This document shows, in pieces, positions 24,121-32,754 of a stretch of 64,000 bases of DNA. The position numbers and the translations under genes are program-made. The notes below the pieces were generated by a model. The model worked only from the letters and a program-made list of their open reading frames with translations, was not told where the DNA came from and searched no databases. Numbering within the stretch: position 1 is the first letter of the stretch; every line of letters starts with the position of its first letter. Origin of the DNA: Capillimicrobium parvum (GTDB lineage Bacteria; Actinomycetota; Thermoleophilia; Solirubrobacterales; Solirubrobacteraceae). The DNA lies in contig NZ_CP087164.1 of assembly GCF_021172045.1 (NCBI RefSeq), positions 2,914,001 through 2,978,000 on the forward strand, in the 5' to 3' direction.

Positions 24121-24155
24121 TGAACGAATCGGAAATGAATCCGAAAACGAATCAC
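24121..24155 (+). repeat. dispersed GAATC repeat, copy A
   Basis: Three GAATC cores spaced 11 and 12 bp (GAATCGGAAAT, then GAATCCGAAAAC, then GAATCAC). Much more AT-rich than the surroundings. Closely similar to copies at 24881 and 26991 in the same orientation. It lies ~18-20 bp from the point where enolase homology stops. Confidence 0.85.
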
Positions 24156-24880: not shown

Positions 24881-24916
24881 TGAAACGAATCGAAGATGAA
24901 TCCGAAAACGAATCGG
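24881..24916 (+). repeat. dispersed GAATC repeat, copy B
   Basis: Same arrangement as copy A (GAATCGAAGAT, GAATCCGAAAAC, GAATCGG); the block ATGAATCCGAAAACGAATC is identical in A and B. Lies in the gap between the convergent DUF3303 gene and the unknown two-gene operon. Confidence 0.85.
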
Positions 24917-24973: not shown

Positions 24974-25528
24974 TCAACGCTGAGCGGCTCGCCGTTCTCG
25001 GCGTCCGGCGCGGACGTCTGCTTCCTGATCGGCGGAAAGGGGCGGCTTGCCTGATTCGGCGCGCCGGGCGTTCATGACGGCGATCACACGGTCGTCCTCG
25101 GCCTCGGCGTCACGCTCGGCCTGCTCGGCGCGCGCCTTTGCTCGGGCAAGCGCGGCTTGGTCGCGGCGTGCGAGGTCGTCCTCGATGCGTCGGCGGACGA
25201 GTTCGGGGACCGCGTCGACCCACGGCCTGCCGGGCTCGATGAGGAACCACTCCCACGTGTACTGGATGCCGGCCTGGTCGACGATGCGGTCGTAGCCCTG
25301 GCTACTGCCGATCGGTTCGTCGGTCGGCCCGCTCCACAGTCGAATCGCCTCGTCGAAGGCATTGACGCTTCTGCGCAGGAGCGAGACGCCTTGCGATCCG
25401 CCGTTGGGTACGTAACGCGAGCCGTTGTCGAGCTGGACGTGGACTTCCTTGCGGAAGATGTCCTGCCACTCGGACTTGATGAACGCGTCGTACAGCTCGG
25501 CCGGCGCGCGCTGGTCGCCGGCAGTCAC
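24974..25528 (-). CDS. unknown soluble protein with C-terminal coiled coil, second gene of a two-gene operon
   Basis: 184 residues, no recognised family. The N-terminal ~110 residues look globular with several aromatics (SEWQDIFRKEVHV, YTWEWFLIEPGRPWVD); residues ~115-150 are a highly charged helix (ARAKARAEQAERDAEAEDD) predicted to be coiled coil; the tail is basic. GTG 25528 overlaps the stop of the upstream gene (GTGA), so the two products are made together and probably interact. Confidence 0.7.
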   Translation of the reverse strand: MTAGDQRAPAELYDAFIKSEWQDIFRKEVHVQLDNGSRYVPNGGSQGVSLLRRSVNAFDEAIRLWSGPTDEPIGSSQGYDRIVDQAGIQYTWEWFLIEPGRPWVDAVPELVRRRIEDDLARRDQAALARAKARAEQAERDAEAEDDRVIAVMNARRAESGKPPLSADQEADVRAGRRERRAAQR

Positions 25529-26883
25529 TGCGGTCCGCCCGTGGGTTCCGTGCGGAGTGGGGCCCGCCGCGGGACCTGCCCTGAGTTCGTTACGGGCTCA
25601 TCGGCGATACCGAGCGCTTCGTCGGCGTCCGCGATTTGCTCCTCCCGTTCGGCCTCGGCCGATGATTCCGGGACCTCGGGTGGGAGCAGATGAAAGATCT
25701 CGCCGTCGCTCGTCGAGAGGTAGAGAAGCTCCGAGCTGTCGTCGACCGTCGCCGGCGCGATTTGAGCGCGGAGCTTGGCCTGCCGCTCGGCCAGGGACTT
25801 GTCCCGGTCGCGCCAGCGGCCCTTCAGCTCGATCTCGGAGAGCTGTCGAGTCAGATCCTCGGCAGCCGCGTGGGTCTGCTCCAGCAGGCGTGCTTCGCTG
25901 TCCAGGTGCTTCTGCAACGCCGTGTATGGATTGTGGGGGTCGACGAGAGCGACGGACGCGGCATCGGCAATGAGCGCCTTGCGCTTGATCGCGATTGCGG
26001 CCCGCGACAGGTGGAGGTCCCGAACGAAGTGGTCTACGTCCTTCGTCTTGCCACCAAGCGCCTGCTCAAGTTGACGGTAGTCCACCTTGCCATCCGCGTC
26101 GACAAGTCGGTCGACCGCGCCGCGGTTGCTCTCCAGGAACTGCCCTGAGCGGTGGAACTCATCGTCTGCGCTCTTCAGTGCGAGTTCCATCGACGGATTG
26201 TGGCCGTCGAGCATCAAGCTGATCGCGCGAGACAGCTGTCTATCGGCGGACCACTGATCCTTCAGCCTTTCGGTGTAGTGGCGTTCCTCCTGCCGACCAA
26301 GGATCGTCTCGATCCTGCGCTGATGGGCAACCTGTTCGCGCCGGGCCGCCATGTCAACGGCCATCACCGTTCCGGCGACAGCGAGCACCGGCCAGCCGGC
26401 TGCGACTGCGCCACCAGCAGCGACTGGCGTCAGGACGGCATGGGCGGTCTTTCCGCCGGAGCGGGAGAACCCTCGATACCCTGACGTGCCGGCAGCCTTG
26501 ACGAGCTCGGCGCCTTTCGGGAGGACAACGCGGTAGAGCGTCGGGCTCATCGGGTTGAGAGCCTTGACGATGTTGACAACCGCCTGCTCAGCGGATGCGT
26601 TCACCGGAACGGCCCGGTACCTCGCAATGTCCGACTCGGTTACGGGCCGGTACTCAACCGCGACTGGCATCGCAGCCGTCTCGAGCGCTTCCCAGACCGT
26701 GGTCGGCGCCGCACCGGCAGCGCCAAGGACTCCTGGTGGGACGAGAATGCCTTCCTCCGGAAACACGGGCCGCACACTGGTCTCGGTTCGGGCGGTCGGC
26801 TCGGGTCGCCGCGAGGATCGCCGGATCAGCCAGGCGGCTACGACTACTGCGATGACGGCGGCGGCGATCAACGCAGGAAGCAT
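25525..26883 (-). CDS. unknown membrane protein with coiled-coil region, first gene of a two-gene operon
   Basis: 452 residues, no family recognised. Residues ~3-20 form a hydrophobic anchor followed by a basic stop (IRRSSRR). Residues ~140-185 hold a second hydrophobic stretch rich in small residues (VAAGGAVAAGWPVLAVAGT), which could be a hairpin or glycine-zipper membrane insert. From ~190 to 380 it is helical and charged with coiled-coil character; the C-terminus is acidic and Pro-rich. The order anchor, small-residue hairpin, long helices resembles membrane effectors, but that is only a suggestion. Bounded by repeat copies B and C. Confidence 0.72.
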   Translation of the reverse strand: MLPALIAAAVIAVVVAAWLIRRSSRRPEPTARTETSVRPVFPEEGILVPPGVLGAAGAAPTTVWEALETAAMPVAVEYRPVTESDIARYRAVPVNASAEQAVVNIVKALNPMSPTLYRVVLPKGAELVKAAGTSGYRGFSRSGGKTAHAVLTPVAAGGAVAAGWPVLAVAGTVMAVDMAARREQVAHQRRIETILGRQEERHYTERLKDQWSADRQLSRAISLMLDGHNPSMELALKSADDEFHRSGQFLESNRGAVDRLVDADGKVDYRQLEQALGGKTKDVDHFVRDLHLSRAAIAIKRKALIADAASVALVDPHNPYTALQKHLDSEARLLEQTHAAAEDLTRQLSEIELKGRWRDRDKSLAERQAKLRAQIAPATVDDSSELLYLSTSDGEIFHLLPPEVPESSAEAEREEQIADADEALGIADEPVTNSGQVPRRAPLRTEPTGGPQ

Positions 26884-26990: not shown

Positions 26991-27026
26991 TGAAGGAATC
27001 GAATAATGAATCCGTGAGCGAATCAC
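26991..27026 (+). repeat. dispersed GAATC repeat, copy C
   Basis: More diverged third copy: GAATCGAATAAT, GAATCCGTGAGC, GAATCAC, cores 12 bp apart. Lies between the divergent unknown membrane operon and the ABC ATPase gene, about 110 bp from each start. Confidence 0.75.
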
Positions 27027-27140: not shown

Positions 27141-29216
27141 ATGTGGTGCGGTATGGAAGCCCACGCGGACGACAGACGGATGGATCCCACGATCGCTGCG
27201 CAGCTGCGCGCGCGACTCGACGTCTCGGAGCTCGACGCGGACGCCAAAGCCGTGATCTCCGCAGCGATCGGCGACGGTGACGCGCTACCTGCCGCCGCCA
27301 AGACCGTCGCCGGGGTCTACCTGAAGTCGATCAGCGTCCGGGGCTTCCGTGGTATCGGTCCCGAGGCGGTCCTCTCGCTGCGGCCGCAGCCGGGGCTCAC
27401 CGTGGTCGTCGGCCGCAACGGGAGCGGGAAGTCCTCGTTTGCCGAGGGCCTTGAGCTGCTGCTGACGGGCACCACCAAGCGATGGGAGTCCGCAGCGAAG
27501 CCGTGGTTGAGCGCGTGGCAGTGCCTGCATTCCGACGAGGGAGCCAGAGTGAGCGCCGAGCTCGTCGTCAGCGGCGAGCAGGCGCCGGTGCGGCTGCAGC
27601 GGACGTGGGAGCCGGACGCCGGGTTCACCGACGCAAGCGGGGCAACCGACGCCATCGAGACACTCGACACGCGTGGATGGACCGAGGCGCTGACGGCGTT
27701 TCGCCCGTTCCTCAGCTACGGCGAGCTCGCATCCATGTTCGACAAGCTCACGAGCCTGTATGCGGCGCTGTCGCCGGTGCTCGGCCTCGAGGACGTCGAC
27801 CGGCTGCTCGTGCGGCTCAGCGACCGGCGTCTCGCCCTCGACAACTCGGCCAAGGCCGTCAAGAACGCGGCGAAGGAGCTCGCTGCGCAACTGGATCCCG
27901 ACGATCCTCGCCAGGCGGAATTGGCCTCACTGTTGGTCACGCGCACGATCGACCCAGACAAGGTCCGCCATCACCTGGACGCGCATCCGCCGGGTATGAG
28001 CGCCAACGATGCGGCCACCGCCGGGCTGCGCGCGCGGGCCACGCGGGCGGTCCCGGACGACGAGGCCATTCGGGCGGCGCGGCTTGGGCTCGACGAGGCA
28101 GAGGCCACGCGGCGAGCGCTCAGCAGAACGGACCTCGACCGCGCTCGCCGGCTGGCGACGCTGCTGGAGGGCGCGCTGGCCGTGCGCGACGCCGGGCGAC
28201 TCATGGAGGACTGCCCAGTGTGCGGCACGACGCAGGTCCTCGACGCGGAGTGGGACGAACGCGCGCGGCAGGAGATCGCTGAGCTGCGCAGGCAGGCCTC
28301 CGTCCTTGACGCGGCGACGCAGCAGGCGGCGAGTGCCCTCCGCCGATGGGAGGCGGTGCTCCACCAGGTGGACATCGCGACCGACGGGACCCTCGAGGAG
28401 GCCCTCGCCGCCGCAGAGCGCATCAGGCAGGCCGCCGCCGCCGCCCGCGCGGAGCTCCAGGGGCTGGACGAGGCCTGGCAGACGCAGGTCGAGGCCGCGA
28501 TGGCGTGGCTGCGAAGCGCACGAGAAGCCGCCGCCCGGTCTGGCGAGCTCAAGGCGACCAAGGCGGCCGAGGCGTGGCTCAAGCAGGTCGCCGACGACCT
28601 GCGCAACGATCGTTTCCGGCCGATCGCCGACCAGGCCGTCGCCAACTGGCAGCAGCTGCGCCACGACTCGAACGTCGAGCTCCACGACATCCGGCTGAAG
28701 AGCGTCGGGCGCCAACGCCAGGCCTCATTCGATGTGCGCGCCGACGGGACGCAGGCCAACGCTCTCGGCGTGATGTCGCAGGGCGAGTTGCTCGCACTGA
28801 GCGTCTCGGTCTTCCTGCCGCGTGCTGGGCTCGACGAGTCCCCGTTTCGCTTCGCGGTCATCGACGACCCGGTCCAGTCCATGGATCCGGCGAAGGTCGA
28901 TGGCCTCGCCAGGATCCTGGCGGACGCCGCGAAGACGCGGCAGGTCGTCGTCTTCACCCACGACGACCGTCTGCCCGAGGCGATCCGTCGCCTGCGACTG
29001 CCCGCGACGGTGCTGCAGGTGCTGCGCCAGAGACGATCCCAGGTAACGGTGCGGGAGGTTCGCAGCCCGCTCGTCCAGCACCTGAAGGACGCCAAGACGA
29101 TGGCAAAGTCCGACCGGTTGGCGGAGGGCGTCCAGCAGCGCGTCGTCCCGACCCTCTGCCGAGGGGCGATCGAGGCGGCGTGCGCGCGCGGTGCGGGACG
29201 GGCAGCCGGTCGCTGA
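27141..29216 (+). CDS. SMC/Rad50-like ABC ATPase with CPVC hook motif (frameshifted near 3' end)
   Basis: About 691 residues in this frame. Walker A GRNGSGKSSFAEG near residue 100, a CPVCGT pair near 360-370 flanked by helices (ELRRQASVLDAATQQ before AALHQ-like segments), signature-like MSQGELLALSVSVFLPR, Walker B FAVIDDPVQSMDP, and H-loop VVFTHDD. This is the RecF/SMC/Rad50 group of DNA-end or structure-sensing ATPases, often found in repair and phage-defence modules. Homology continues in the +1 frame after ~29190; see the next entry. ATG 27141 has CGGAG 9 nt upstream; GTG 27135 and ATGs 27153 and 27180 are alternatives. Confidence 0.88.
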   Translation: MWCGMEAHADDRRMDPTIAAQLRARLDVSELDADAKAVISAAIGDGDALPAAAKTVAGVYLKSISVRGFRGIGPEAVLSLRPQPGLTVVVGRNGSGKSSFAEGLELLLTGTTKRWESAAKPWLSAWQCLHSDEGARVSAELVVSGEQAPVRLQRTWEPDAGFTDASGATDAIETLDTRGWTEALTAFRPFLSYGELASMFDKLTSLYAALSPVLGLEDVDRLLVRLSDRRLALDNSAKAVKNAAKELAAQLDPDDPRQAELASLLVTRTIDPDKVRHHLDAHPPGMSANDAATAGLRARATRAVPDDEAIRAARLGLDEAEATRRALSRTDLDRARRLATLLEGALAVRDAGRLMEDCPVCGTTQVLDAEWDERARQEIAELRRQASVLDAATQQAASALRRWEAVLHQVDIATDGTLEEALAAAERIRQAAAAARAELQGLDEAWQTQVEAAMAWLRSAREAAARSGELKATKAAEAWLKQVADDLRNDRFRPIADQAVANWQQLRHDSNVELHDIRLKSVGRQRQASFDVRADGTQANALGVMSQGELLALSVSVFLPRAGLDESPFRFAVIDDPVQSMDPAKVDGLARILADAAKTRQVVVFTHDDRLPEAIRRLRLPATVLQVLRQRRSQVTVREVRSPLVQHLKDAKTMAKSDRLAEGVQQRVVPTLCRGAIEAACARGAGRAAGR

Positions 29217-29454
29217 GGCGGACGAGCGCCTCAAGGAGGCCGGAATGCTCCGCCAGCGGCTCGCCCTGGCGATCCTGGGAGACGCGAGCCGGACGGACGA
29301 GCTGGGGAAGGAGCTCGTTCGCGTCGGGGGCCCGGGCGCGCCGGCGCTGCTGCGTCGACTGAACGCCGGTGCGCACGGGGACTTCGACGGCTCCGTCCGC
29401 GACCTCCCGCACGAGACCGAGCGCTTCGTGCACGCGCTCGTCGACGCGTCATGA
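29191..29454 (+). CDS. C-terminal segment of the ABC ATPase in the shifted frame
   Basis: In the upstream frame the protein ends shortly after AIEAAC in Gly/Ala/Arg residues, while this frame continues with RDGQPVAEADERLKEAG, LRQRLALAILGD, LRRLNAGAHGDFDGSVRDL and an end at 29454. It reads like the natural helical C-terminus of the same protein. The switch lies in a GCGCGCGCG tract at ~29181-29190, where loss of one GC dinucleotide (or one extra base) explains it. Either a real inactivating slip, a programmed/phase-variable site, or an assembly error. Its stop overlaps the next start (ATGA). Confidence 0.7.
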   Translation: MRDGQPVAEADERLKEAGMLRQRLALAILGDASRTDELGKELVRVGGPGAPALLRRLNAGAHGDFDGSVRDLPHETERFVHALVDAS

Positions 29455-29867
29455 AGGTCAACGACCTTCTCCTCGCCGCGCTCAAGCTGCTCGACCAGCC
29501 GATCGAGGATGCCGAGGGGACGTGGCCGCACGCAGCAGCCGTCCTGACCCGACAGGCGATCGAGGAGACCATGTCGCGCTGGTGGAAGCACGTCGAGCCC
29601 GACATGAACGCGGCGAACTGGAACGAGAAGTGGCTGGCCCTGCCCAGCTACCTGGGCCGGTCTCCGGTCGTCGGCGAGGCGCACTACGCCTGGTCGGTGC
29701 TGTCCGACGCTTGCCACCACCGCGCCTACGAGATCGGCCTGACCGAGGCGGAGCTGCGCTCGCTGCTGATCAAGGCCAACGACTTTGCGCGCCTAGTCAG
29801 CGACCGGCTCGCCAACCGCCAGATTCGGATCGAAAGGGTGGCGGCCGCAGCGTTACCAGTTGCGTGA
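29451..29867 (+). CDS. small helical partner of the ABC ATPase (possible HEPN-like fold)
   Basis: 138 residues, all predicted helix: LLLAALKLLDQPIEDAEG, TRQAIEETMSRWWKHVEP, YAWSVLSDACHHRAYEIGL, LIKANDFARLVSDRLANRQ. The four- to five-helix pattern and a CHHRAYEIG segment resemble HEPN-type or abortive-infection helical proteins, but no Rx4-6H ribonuclease motif can be fixed confidently. ATG 29451 overlaps the stop of the ATPase's C-terminal segment (ATGA), so it is translationally coupled and almost certainly works with the ATPase. Confidence 0.7.
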   Translation: MKVNDLLLAALKLLDQPIEDAEGTWPHAAAVLTRQAIEETMSRWWKHVEPDMNAANWNEKWLALPSYLGRSPVVGEAHYAWSVLSDACHHRAYEIGLTEAELRSLLIKANDFARLVSDRLANRQIRIERVAAAALPVA

Positions 29868-30011: not shown

Positions 30012-30338
30012 TTACGACGCAGCCACTACTGAGGCCGAGCCGCCGGAGCCCTCGAGCGCCCGCAATCTGTCCACGATGTCGAGCGTCTTGACACTCACGG
30101 CTACGACCCGGAGGAGCAGGTCGACGATGTAACGCGGGTCATCCGAGTAGCGGTTGGGGTCGTTGCGGATGCCGGAGTCCTTGTCGGTGCGGACCTGGTG
30201 GCGGTCCATCACCCACTCGATAGCCGGTCGACCGTTGACTTCGTAGTCGTAGGCGCGCTCGGGAATGCCGGCGATCGTCAGGTGGGCGCTGACGATGATG
30301 GAGCTGCGGTCGCGCTTGCTGGGGAATCGCAGCTTCTC
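30012..30338 (-). pseudogene. C-terminal remnant of a large restriction/helicase protein (type ISP-like)
   Basis: About 108 codons that match the extreme C-terminus of type ISP/DEAD-helicase restriction-modification polypeptides: VEKLRFPSKRDRSSIIV, LTIAGIPERAYDYEVNGRPA, EWVMDRHQVRTDKDSGIRND, PRYIVDLLLRVVAVSVKT. The full proteins exceed 1000 residues, so helicase, nuclease and methyltransferase parts are gone. The open frame extends upstream to 30509 but that part has no such features. Marks an eroded defence locus downstream of the ATPase pair. Confidence 0.75.
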
Positions 30339-30590
30339 GACGCGGTAACGGACGGAGTATGCATGGCGTGAGTTGCCAGTCGAGCGACACGCGCTTAGCG
30401 CGCTCGCGTGGGTTCGCGCGTGCCGAGCACGAAGCTTCGCGGAGGCGTGCACGAGGCTTCGCTGCGCGGGGCATTCTCGATTCGTCTGAAACAGGGATGG
30501 AGAGTCCATCGGGCAACGCCCGCTAATCGACGTTATGTGAACCCGATCCGACGAACCACGCCGTGACAGGCGGCGCGCTCCAGCTGGTCA

Positions 30591-31163
30591 TCAGCTCGCT
30601 GCGGCGTGGCTTGCGATGCCGGCGACGATGGTGTCGAGCCCGGCGTCAAACGCCCGGATGAGTGGACCGAGTTCGTCGCCGGCGTGACGCAGCGGTGCCG
30701 CGGCGCCGAGCGCGGCACCGTGAACGAAGTCGACGACGAGCCAGACGTTGGGCTCAACGAGGTCAACGTCGATGCCGCTGTCGGCGACCGCATCGGTGAG
30801 GGGCGCGACGAGCGGCATGGCGCCGGCGGCGACGACCGGGTCAGCGAGCCCTGCGGCGACGAGGTCGCGGTTGACCACCACAACATCCCAGTACGCCTTC
30901 GCCCAGCCCCGCACCCGCACGTCCCATGGGTCATCCGCGGCGGGGAGCGTCATCGCCCCGACCGTGCGCGCCATCACGAGCGAGAGGAGCTCGCGCTTGC
31001 TGGCGACGTGGTGGTACACGGCCATCGGGTCGACGCCGAGCGCGGCACCGAGCCTGCGCATCGACAAGGCGGGCAGCCCCGCGTCGGCGATCAGCTCGCA
31101 CGTCGTCTCGACGATCGCGTCAACCGTGAGCGGATCGGTTCTCTGCCGCGCCTGATTGCTCAT
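30591..31163 (-). CDS. TetR-family repressor, duplicate copy 1
   Basis: 190 residues. N-terminal HTH with LSMRRLGAALGV and VDPMAVYHHVASK, typical of TetR/AcrR (TetR class II-like) with a C-terminal ligand-binding half (DLVEPNVWLVVDFVHG, GLDTIVAGIAS). Probably represses itself and the divergent FMN-binding-like gene through the palindromes in the intergenic region. Identical in sequence to copy 2 at 31621. Start ATG 31163. Confidence 0.92.
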   Translation of the reverse strand: MSNQARQRTDPLTVDAIVETTCELIADAGLPALSMRRLGAALGVDPMAVYHHVASKRELLSLVMARTVGAMTLPAADDPWDVRVRGWAKAYWDVVVVNRDLVAAGLADPVVAAGAMPLVAPLTDAVADSGIDVDLVEPNVWLVVDFVHGAALGAAAPLRHAGDELGPLIRAFDAGLDTIVAGIASHAAAS

Positions 31164-31164
31164 C

Positions 31165-31200
31165 TCTACGCTGTAGAGTAGCTCGACTCTACGCCGTAGA
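31165..31200. promoter_or_regulatory. twin palindromic operator, copy 1
   Basis: Two 13-bp palindromes, TCTACGCTGTAGA (31165-31177) and TCTACGCCGTAGA (31188-31200), with form TCTAC-N3-GTAGA, lie 23 bp centre to centre, immediately upstream of the TetR start and 14 bp before the divergent gene. Best read as binding sites for the adjacent TetR repressor. Confidence 0.75.
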
Positions 31201-31214
31201 ACGAAAGGCTCGAC

Positions 31215-31691
31215 GTGCATGAACGCCCGGAGGATCTCACCGCTCTGCAACACCTGATTGACGACGCCTACGCGAACGCCAGCGCTCACCTGCTCAGCAT
31301 TCACGAACCCGAACGGCGGCTCAACGCCGCCGCCGTGGCCTCCACGCTGACCGGCATGCGCCTCCTCGTGCTTGCCACCACCACGCGCGATGGCCGGCCG
31401 ATCACCGGGGCGGTCGACGGCGTGTTCTACCGCGGCCGCTTCCACTTCGGGTCGTCGCCCGACTCCGTGCGATTCCGACACATCCGAGAGCGGCCTGAAG
31501 TGAGCGCCACCCACCTGCCCGGCGAACACCTCGCGATCACAGTGCACGGGACGGCCGAGATGATCGACGTCGGCGCGCCCGAGCACGCCGAGTTCCGTGG
31601 CGGCGCGCTCCAGCTGGTCATCAGCTCGCTGCGGCGTGGCTTGCGATGCCGGCGACGATGGTGTCGAGCCCGGCGTCAAACGCCCGGATGA
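31215..31691 (+). pseudogene. pyridoxamine-phosphate-oxidase-like protein, truncated by the duplication
   Basis: The first 128 codons equal the intact gene at 32245 (MHERPEDLTALQHLI..., LLVLATTTRDGRPITGAV, FHFGSSPDSVRFRHI). At 31599 the duplication junction replaces the C-terminal ~41 residues by about 30 out-of-frame ones, ending at 31691 inside the antisense TetR copy 2. The lost end includes the ILEGGTFARIHPRRMFTF strand, so a folded enzyme is unlikely. Confidence 0.9.
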
Positions 31692-32193
31692 GTGGACCGA
31701 GTTCGTCGCCGGCGTGACGCAGCGGTGCCGCGGCGCCGAGCGCGGCACCGTGAACGAAGTCGACGACGAGCCAGACGTTGGGCTCAACGAGGTCAACGTC
31801 GATGCCGCTGTCGGCGACCGCATCGGTGAGGGGCGCGACGAGCGGCATGGCGCCGGCGGCGACGACCGGGTCAGCGAGCCCTGCGGCGACGAGGTCGCGG
31901 TTGACCACCACAACATCCCAGTACGCCTTCGCCCAGCCCCGCACCCGCACGTCCCATGGGTCATCCGCGGCGGGGAGCGTCATCGCCCCGACCGTGCGCG
32001 CCATCACGAGCGAGAGGAGCTCGCGCTTGCTGGCGACGTGGTGGTACACGGCCATCGGGTCGACGCCGAGCGCGGCACCGAGCCTGCGCATCGACAAGGC
32101 GGGCAGCCCCGCGTCGGCGATCAGCTCGCACGTCGTCTCGACGATCGCGTCAACCGTGAGCGGATCGGTTCTCTGCCGCGCCTGATTGCTCAT
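31621..32193 (-). CDS. TetR-family repressor, duplicate copy 2
   Basis: 190 residues, same product as copy 1 with the same HTH and ligand-binding halves. This is the copy that faces the intact divergent gene at 32245 across its own twin operator. Two identical repressor genes would raise repressor dose and provide homology for loss or amplification of the unit by recombination. Confidence 0.92.
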   Translation of the reverse strand: MSNQARQRTDPLTVDAIVETTCELIADAGLPALSMRRLGAALGVDPMAVYHHVASKRELLSLVMARTVGAMTLPAADDPWDVRVRGWAKAYWDVVVVNRDLVAAGLADPVVAAGAMPLVAPLTDAVADSGIDVDLVEPNVWLVVDFVHGAALGAAAPLRHAGDELGPLIRAFDAGLDTIVAGIASHAAAS

Positions 32194-32194
32194 C

Positions 32195-32230
32195 TCTACG
32201 CTGTAGAGTAGCTCGACTCTACGCCGTAGA
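32195..32230. promoter_or_regulatory. twin palindromic operator, copy 2
   Basis: Same pair of TCTAC-N3-GTAGA palindromes at 32195-32207 and 32218-32230, between TetR copy 2 and the intact oxidase-like gene. Confidence 0.75.
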
Positions 32231-32244
32231 ACGAAAGGCTCGAC

Positions 32245-32754
32245 GTGCATGAACGCCCGGAGGATCTCACCGCTCTGCAACACCTGATTGACGACGCCTA
32301 CGCGAACGCCAGCGCTCACCTGCTCAGCATTCACGAACCCGAACGGCGGCTCAACGCCGCCGCCGTGGCCTCCACGCTGACCGGCATGCGCCTCCTCGTG
32401 CTTGCCACCACCACGCGCGATGGCCGGCCGATCACCGGGGCGGTCGACGGCGTGTTCTACCGCGGCCGCTTCCACTTCGGGTCGTCGCCCGACTCCGTGC
32501 GATTCCGACACATCCGAGAGCGGCCTGAAGTGAGCGCCACCCACCTGCCCGGCGAACACCTCGCGATCACAGTGCACGGGACGGCCGAGATGATCGACGT
32601 CGGCGCGCCCGAGCACGCCGAGTTCCGTCAAACCCTCCTCGACATCTACCTGCCCCGGTATGGAGACGCGTGGCTCCCGATCCTCGAAGGCGGCACCTTC
32701 GCCCGCATCCACCCGCGCCGGATGTTCACCTTCGCAATGTCTGAGGCCGCGTAG
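32245..32754 (+). CDS. pyridoxamine 5'-phosphate oxidase-like flavin-binding protein
   Basis: 169 residues with the split-barrel flavin-reductase/PNPOx fold: LTGMRLLVLATTTRDGRPITG as the first strands, GVFYRGRFHFGSSPDSVRFRHI, VSATHLPGEHLAITVHGTAE and the closing RIHPRRMFTFAMSE. Such proteins bind FMN or F420 and act as oxidases, reductases or general-stress proteins; substrate unknown. GTG 32245 follows AAAGG. Likely under control of the divergent TetR repressor. Confidence 0.9.
   Translation: MHERPEDLTALQHLIDDAYANASAHLLSIHEPERRLNAAAVASTLTGMRLLVLATTTRDGRPITGAVDGVFYRGRFHFGSSPDSVRFRHIRERPEVSATHLPGEHLAITVHGTAEMIDVGAPEHAEFRQTLLDIYLPRYGDAWLPILEGGTFARIHPRRMFTFAMSEAA

What the first reader, a model, noticed from the sequence alone, without database searches (positions are those of the whole stretch)
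27141..29867. ABC/SMC-like ATPase with CPVC hook and translationally coupled helical partner: candidate defence or repair module
The ATPase has Walker A, a CPVC hook, signature, Walker B and H-loop in RecF/Rad50 order, and a 138-residue all-helical protein overlaps its end (ATGA). A restriction-enzyme remnant follows, a toxin-antitoxin pair lies upstream, and a repeat bounds the 5' side. Sensor ATPase plus small helical effector is a frequent plan for anti-phage systems; I could not match this pair to a named one.
Basis: inference. Interest (0 to 1): 0.6.

Follow-up and report, generated by a model that had tools for sequence, protein, structure and literature searches.

The report
Split RloC-like ATPase–HEPN nuclease pair
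This is a widespread, apparently unnamed two-gene bacterial module: a Rad50-like zinc-hook ATPase ending in an RNA-cutting-type (HEPN) domain, plus a small separate HEPN partner with the same catalytic-looking residues, which probably shuts down the cell's own RNA or translation under attack or DNA damage; the copy in this window is broken by a frameshift.

Summary
The pair is real, conserved and not chance. In 79 of 80 homologous loci from six phyla the ATPase gene is directly followed by the small gene (the 80th contig ends there), with a 4-nt overlap in 44 of 78. Searching from the small gene instead, 20 of 21 loci have the ATPase upstream. The partner's AlphaFold model (pLDDT 95.6) has a HEPN fold (VIA-align Z 13.3). 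It lacks the usual Rx4-6H motif but keeps R34-x3-E38...H89 almost invariantly (105/106, 105/106, 106/106), the pattern of the RloC/PrrC anticodon-nuclease triad. The ATPase's C-terminal tail carries a second R-x3-E...H (104/104, 103/104, 103/104) and resembles RloC's nuclease domain in profile comparison (0 of 60 permutations as good). Best reading: an RloC-like, ATPase-gated RNase whose HEPN unit is a heterodimer of tail and partner. RNase activity, tRNA target and anti-phage role are inferred, not shown. This is the genome's only copy; it may be inactive, or the shift a sequencing error. I found no named system with this pair.

The parts
27180..29216 (+). Rad50/SMC-like ABC ATPase with CPVC hook, reading frame as it stands (678 aa, ends early at TGA 29214-29216)
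   Evidence: start set by conserved MDP in relatives; fold of the intact relative L032 is a Rad50 head
27411..27434 (+). Walker A GRNGSGKS
   Evidence: invariant lysine 40/40
28212..28223 (+). CPVC zinc-hook motif
   Evidence: both Cys 40/40
28773..28787 (+). ABC signature MSQGE
   Evidence: invariant in A4
28851..28871 (+). Walker B FAVIDDP
   Evidence: DDP invariant
28959..28961 (+). H-loop histidine
   Evidence: 40/40
29160..29174 (+). R661-x3-E665 of the ATPase-tail HEPN-like domain (R679/E683 in L032)
   Evidence: R 104/104, E 103/104
29176..29190 (+). frameshift zone (GC-rich, GCGTGCGCGCGCGG): frame 0 before, +1 after
   Evidence: alignment with intact relatives and reading of the sequence
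29191..29454 (+). rest of the ATPase tail in the +1 frame; conserved His codon at 29374-29376 (LNAGAHGD)
29451..29867 (+). 138-aa HEPN-fold partner; R34 (29550-29552), E38 (29562-29564), H89 (29715-29717)
29451..29454 (+). ATGA overlap of the +1-frame ATPase stop and the partner start
   Evidence: 4-nt overlap in 44/78 relatives

Best explanation
The locus is a decayed (or mis-sequenced) member of a two-gene family that works like the RloC/PrrC ABC-HEPN ribonucleases, but with its HEPN unit divided between two chains. Chain 1 is a Rad50-like ATPase with a short coiled coil and a CPVC zinc hook, ending in a HEPN-like domain with an R-x3-E...H triad. Chain 2, translated right after it, is a free HEPN domain with its own R-x3-E...H triad. 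Proposed working: ATP-driven head engagement and the zinc hook hold the tail-partner HEPN heterodimer inactive. A trigger such as DNA ends, phage-altered DNA or a nucleotide signal opens it, and it cuts RNA, most likely tRNA anticodon loops, so translation stops and growth or infection is aborted. Shown here: gene pairing, Rad50-head fold, hook, HEPN fold of the partner, near-invariance of both triads, relatedness of the tail to RloC's nuclease domain, and the frameshift. Inferred: physical complex, RNase activity, tRNA target, trigger, defence role.
For: Pairing: 79/80 loci, 20/21 in the reverse search, 4-nt overlap in 44/78, Mantel r 0.78. ATPase model: Rad50 heads at Z 22-27 over residues about 55-653; CPVC cysteines 40/40. 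Partner model pLDDT 95.6; the top PDB matches are HEPN proteins, 2hsb Z 13.3, 2q00 12.2, sacsin HEPN 11.6. Partner triad R34/E38/H89 105, 105 and 106 of 106; tail R/E/H 104, 103 and 103 of 104. The RloC paper defines the nuclease motif as Arg-X3-Glu-X36-52-His, needed for activity by mutation (PMC2610378); the partner spacing is 50. R34/E38 lie in helix 2 and H89 at the end of helix 3, where HEPN nucleases keep their acidic residue and catalytic His (PMC3710099); the tail helices follow the same order. hhalign: tail versus RloC nuclease domains E 5e-4, score 30.4, best permuted 18.7; partner versus tail, global score 17.7, best permuted 8.9; 0/60 each. An RloC-like control protein hits PADLOC PDC-S06 at 8e-202, and all 40 ATPases hit PDC-S06 weakly, best 1e-18.
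Against: No experiment. Partner versus RloC directly gave nothing above permutations, and partner versus tail in local mode was reached by 1 of 60 permutations. Tail spacing E...H is 72 in L032, outside RloC's 36-52. The canonical Rx4-6H is absent. The module is near-core in one genus (83/98), which is unusual for phage defence. Neighbourhoods show only some defence genes: GmrSD in 4, N6-methylase in 2 of 131 neighbours, without a background count. The window copy is frameshifted.
Confidence: 0.6

Rival explanations
1. A DNA-repair or chromosome-maintenance complex of the RecF/Rad50 type; the HEPN-fold domains only bind nucleic acid or scaffold the complex, without catalysis.
For: Rad50-like head; weak RecF and Rad50 profile hits; near-core in one genus, 83/98, and in Solirubrobacter, 6/7, with conserved neighbours in Nocardia loci.
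Against: No repair model above cut-off; no recurring nuclease neighbour such as SbcD/Mre11 among flanking genes; absent from 281 of 301 good Actinomycetota genomes; the few invariant partner residues are the catalytic-type triad R, E, H plus W and L.
Confidence: 0.2
2. A toxin-antitoxin-like or abortive-infection module in which the partner is an RNase with a target other than tRNA (mRNA, rRNA) and the ATPase is the sensor or neutraliser.
For: HEPN fold and triad; decayed copies and an orphan partner (L052, L102; L135; Streptomyces partners split between frames) fit a costly or conditionally useful gene; GmrSD restriction genes next door in some loci.
Against: The tail matches RloC's anticodon-nuclease domain, although other HEPN groups were not compared; the target is not testable here.
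Confidence: 0.15
3. A Lamassu-type system (LmuB SMC ATPase plus small subunit) that lost its effector.
For: LmuB profile hits of 2e-17 and in 40/40 members.
Against: Partner hits no PADLOC model; no recurring effector gene in 80 loci; the hits are partial and shared by other Rad50-like ATPases, including the RloC-like control.
Confidence: 0.05

Closest known systems
RloC (zinc-hook anticodon nuclease; Davidov and Kaufmann 2008, PMC2610378)
   Same: Rad50-like ABC ATPase split by a coiled coil with a CxxC hook; C-terminal R-x3-E...H domain; profile similarity of that domain.
   Different: RloC is one gene. Here a second, separate HEPN protein with its own triad almost always follows; tail E...H spacing is longer (72 against 36-52); not recognised by PF13166 at cut-off.
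PrrC (anticodon nuclease of EcoprrI)
   Same: ABC ATPase plus C-terminal HEPN with the R-x3-E...H triad.
   Different: PrrC has no zinc hook and sits inside a type I restriction locus; no separate HEPN gene is described in the papers read.
HEPN superfamily (AF0298/2hsb, MNT-HEPN toxins, DUF4145)
   Same: Fold of the partner.
   Different: No nucleotidyltransferase antitoxin; no Rx4-6H; ATPase partner instead.
Lamassu LmuB, MADS Mad3, PADLOC HEC-01A
   Same: SMC/Rad50-type ATPase core gives weak profile matches.
   Different: None of their companion genes recur here; different second gene.

Membership tests
RloC | Rad50-like ABC ATPase head with coiled-coil insert and CxxC hook | tested here: met
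RloC | C-terminal Arg-X3-Glu-X36-52-His in the same chain | tested here: not met
   R-x3-E and His are near-invariant in the tail, but spacing is 72 in L032; the separate partner has spacing 50
RloC | Profile membership: PF13166 at cut-off, or full-length PADLOC PDC-S06 match as the RloC-like control gives | tested here: not met
   PF13166 19.7 bits against 36; PDC-S06 only partial matches, E 1e-16, against 8e-202 for the control
RloC | Works as a single gene, no obligatory partner | tested here: not met
   partner in 79/80 loci
RloC | tRNA anticodon cleavage | not testable with these tools
   needs an assay
HEPN superfamily (partner) | HEPN four-helix fold | tested here: met
   Z 13.3 over 113 residues, HEPN entries fill the top ranks
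HEPN superfamily (partner) | Rx4-6H motif of typical nuclease HEPNs | tested here: not met
   no R at positions 82-84; the RloC/PrrC-type R-x3-E...H is present instead
HEPN superfamily (ATPase tail) | HEPN fold of the tail alone | tested here: inconclusive
   helix order and triad fit and RloC profile match, but the tail was not folded or searched by itself
Lamassu | LmuA effector and LmuC with the LmuB ATPase | tested here: not met
Rad50/SbcC repair ATPase | equivalog score and SbcD/Mre11 partner | tested here: not met
MNT-HEPN toxin-antitoxin | adjacent nucleotidyltransferase | tested here: not met
   the only gene that recurs next to the partner across lineages is the ATPase

The most novel reading that the evidence does not exclude
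A so far unnamed family of ATPase-gated ribonucleases in which the nuclease is an obligate heterodimer of two diverged HEPN domains, one fused to a zinc-hook Rad50-like ATPase and one free, each keeping the full anticodon-nuclease triad: an RloC that split its catalytic dimer into two genes. It occurs in Actinomycetota, Acidobacteriota, Dormibacterota, Chloroflexota, Myxococcota and Spirochaetota.
Probability: 0.45. Interest if true: 0.75.

Novelty: new variant of a known kind. Interest (0 to 1): 0.6.

Why it matters
If right, it adds a common, unannotated RNase toxin module to actinobacteria (about 7% of good-quality genomes sampled in the phylum, 17% of sampled Streptomyces, 85% of one genus) with residues ready for mutation. 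It would also show how an ABC-HEPN nuclease can become a two-gene heteromer, which makes the role of the second HEPN in anticodon nucleases directly testable.

Tried and rejected
Viral contigs and phage records: no match. Plasmids: one weak match, on a Nocardia farcinica replicon. Partner against Pfam, also all 43 members: only noise, best HEPN E 0.16. Partner against PHROGs: nothing. Solved-structure sequence search with the partner profile: nothing convincing. Partner against RloC directly by hhalign: no better than permuted columns. PF13166 in relatives: none in 21 genomes, 5 of 296 in the phylum. Fold search of the whole ATPase model lists only heads of Rad50/SMC and says nothing about the tail. 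Programmed frameshifting was considered and rejected: the other aligned relatives are in one frame. Literature: the ABC-ATPase classification paper (gkaa726) is not held; no held paper found describes the pair.

Full report
What is there. The window is part of a single-contig 5.95-Mb genome whose nearest relatives in the ATPase tree are Paraconexibacter and Solirubrobacter. The ATPase frame runs 27180-29216 and has Walker A, CPVC, signature, Walker B and H-loop in Rad50 order. The 138-aa ORF at 29451-29867 follows.

The frameshift. The ATPase frame stops at 29216, and the stop in the ATGA at 29451-29454 belongs to the +1 frame 29191-29454. In relatives one unbroken ATPase of about 770-800 aa covers both parts. 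So the window copy has a frameshift around 29176-29190, inside the C-terminal domain. The +1 frame still encodes the conserved LNxGAHG, so the break is recent or a sequencing error; I could not tell which. It is the only copy in the genome. Split ATPase frames also occur in L052 and L102, and several Streptomyces partners are split between frames.

Co-occurrence. A genome-collection scan with the ATPase alignment kept 80 loci from six phyla. 79 have the partner directly downstream; in the 80th, L107, the contig ends. Of 78 measurable pairs, 44 overlap by exactly 4 nt. An independent search starting from the partner found 21 genomes out of 396 (20 of 301 good ones). Twenty of these loci have the ATPase upstream, and the last (L135) keeps only what looks like the end of a decayed ATPase. 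ATPase and partner distances correlate (r 0.78, 0/2000 permutations). No other gene recurs next to the pair outside lineage-specific synteny.

The ATPase. The intact Paraconexibacter protein was modelled (pLDDT 88.7). Residues about 55-653 match Rad50, SMC and SbcC heads at Z 22-27. Both CPVC cysteines are present in 40/40. No curated repair family reaches its cut-off. PADLOC gives only partial hits to ATPases of several systems, among them PDC-S06. An RloC-like control protein (L112: CPFC hook, R-x3-E...GSH) matches PDC-S06 over its full length at 8e-202, so PDC-S06 contains RloC-like proteins.

The partner. Modelled from 43 sequences, pLDDT 95.6, helices 3-15, 24-48, 57-68, 72-88, 99-134. 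The PDB comparison is led by HEPN proteins (Z 13.3, 12.2, 11.6, 11.5, 11.2). That is at the level helical bundles can reach by chance, but nearly all top rows are HEPN entries. The only invariant residues in 43 diverse members are R34, E38, W81, L84 and H89. Over 106 members R34 and E38 are kept in 105 and H89 in 106.

The triads. The RloC paper gives Arg-X3-Glu-X36-52-His as the nuclease motif, with each residue needed for activity (PMC2610378). [quoted passage not shown] The partner has R34-x3-E38 in its second helix and H89 right after its third long helix, 50 residues on. The ATPase tail has R679-x3-E683 in a long helix and H756 at the end of a later helix, near-invariant in 104 members, though its spacing of 72 is outside RloC's range. 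Profile comparison of the tail with ten RloC-type nuclease domains gave score 30.4 (E 5e-4), with permuted columns reaching 18.7. Partner against tail scored 17.7 globally, permuted at most 8.9. Both align the triads. The partner profile also picks up the R-x3-E helix of the tail as a second, weaker domain in the window. The partner did not match RloC directly.

Mechanism (inferred). The simplest reading is an ATP-gated RNase: Rad50-like heads and zinc hook as sensor, tail and partner as a HEPN heterodimer. HEPN nucleases generally act as dimers (general knowledge), and RloC is inhibited through its hook and uses the same triad to cut tRNA. The tRNA target is carried over from RloC and is the weakest link.

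Distribution and role. That mixes near-core inheritance with patchiness. Defence genes lie next door in some loci: GmrSD in 4 of 131 neighbours scanned, N6-methylases in 2, ResIII in 2. In the window a type ISP restriction remnant lies about 145 nt downstream. I did not compare this with a background, so it is not evidence of enrichment. An anti-phage role is plausible, not shown; a DNA-damage response, as described for RloC, is equally open.

Novelty. I found no named system or held paper with this pair, but the main ABC-ATPase survey was not available, so it may have been noted there. I file it as a new variant of the ABC-HEPN (RloC/PrrC-like) kind, not as an RloC member, because single-gene organisation, spacing and profile membership were tested and not met.

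Noticed in passing
window 30569-31598 and 31599-32628: Perfect 1030-bp tandem duplication (TetR gene and start of a pyridoxamine-phosphate-oxidase-like gene); a recent duplication or an assembly artefact.
   Followed up: partly
window 30012-30509: Remnant of a type ISP restriction enzyme: only the last 85 of 342 positions of PF18135.
   Followed up: yes
window 24123-24153, 24884-24914, 26994-27024: 31-nt repeat AACGAATCGGAAATGAATCCGAAAACGAATC, two close copies and a third at 61% just upstream of the ATPase.
   Followed up: no
window 24974-26883: Two adjacent minus-strand genes (184 and 452 aa, the larger with an N-terminal membrane-like segment) without any convincing family match.
   Followed up: no
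L052, L102, L135; G744, G812, G840: Further decayed copies: split ATPase frames, an orphan partner, and partners split between two frames.
   Followed up: partly
L057 partner and L160 partner: Rare triad departures: Pro in place of R34 in one Streptomyces, Asp in place of E38 in another.
   Followed up: no
Nocardia loci such as L077, L100, L107: In many Nocardia loci the pair sits beside a conserved divergent gene cluster (a SWIM-like zinc-finger protein and others by sequence look); the conserved context suggests vertical inheritance there.
   Followed up: partly
L117 and L119 (plasmids): RloC-like genes next to a conjugation gene (Phaeobacter) and a BsuBI/PstI restriction enzyme (Lactiplantibacillus).
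   Followed up: no
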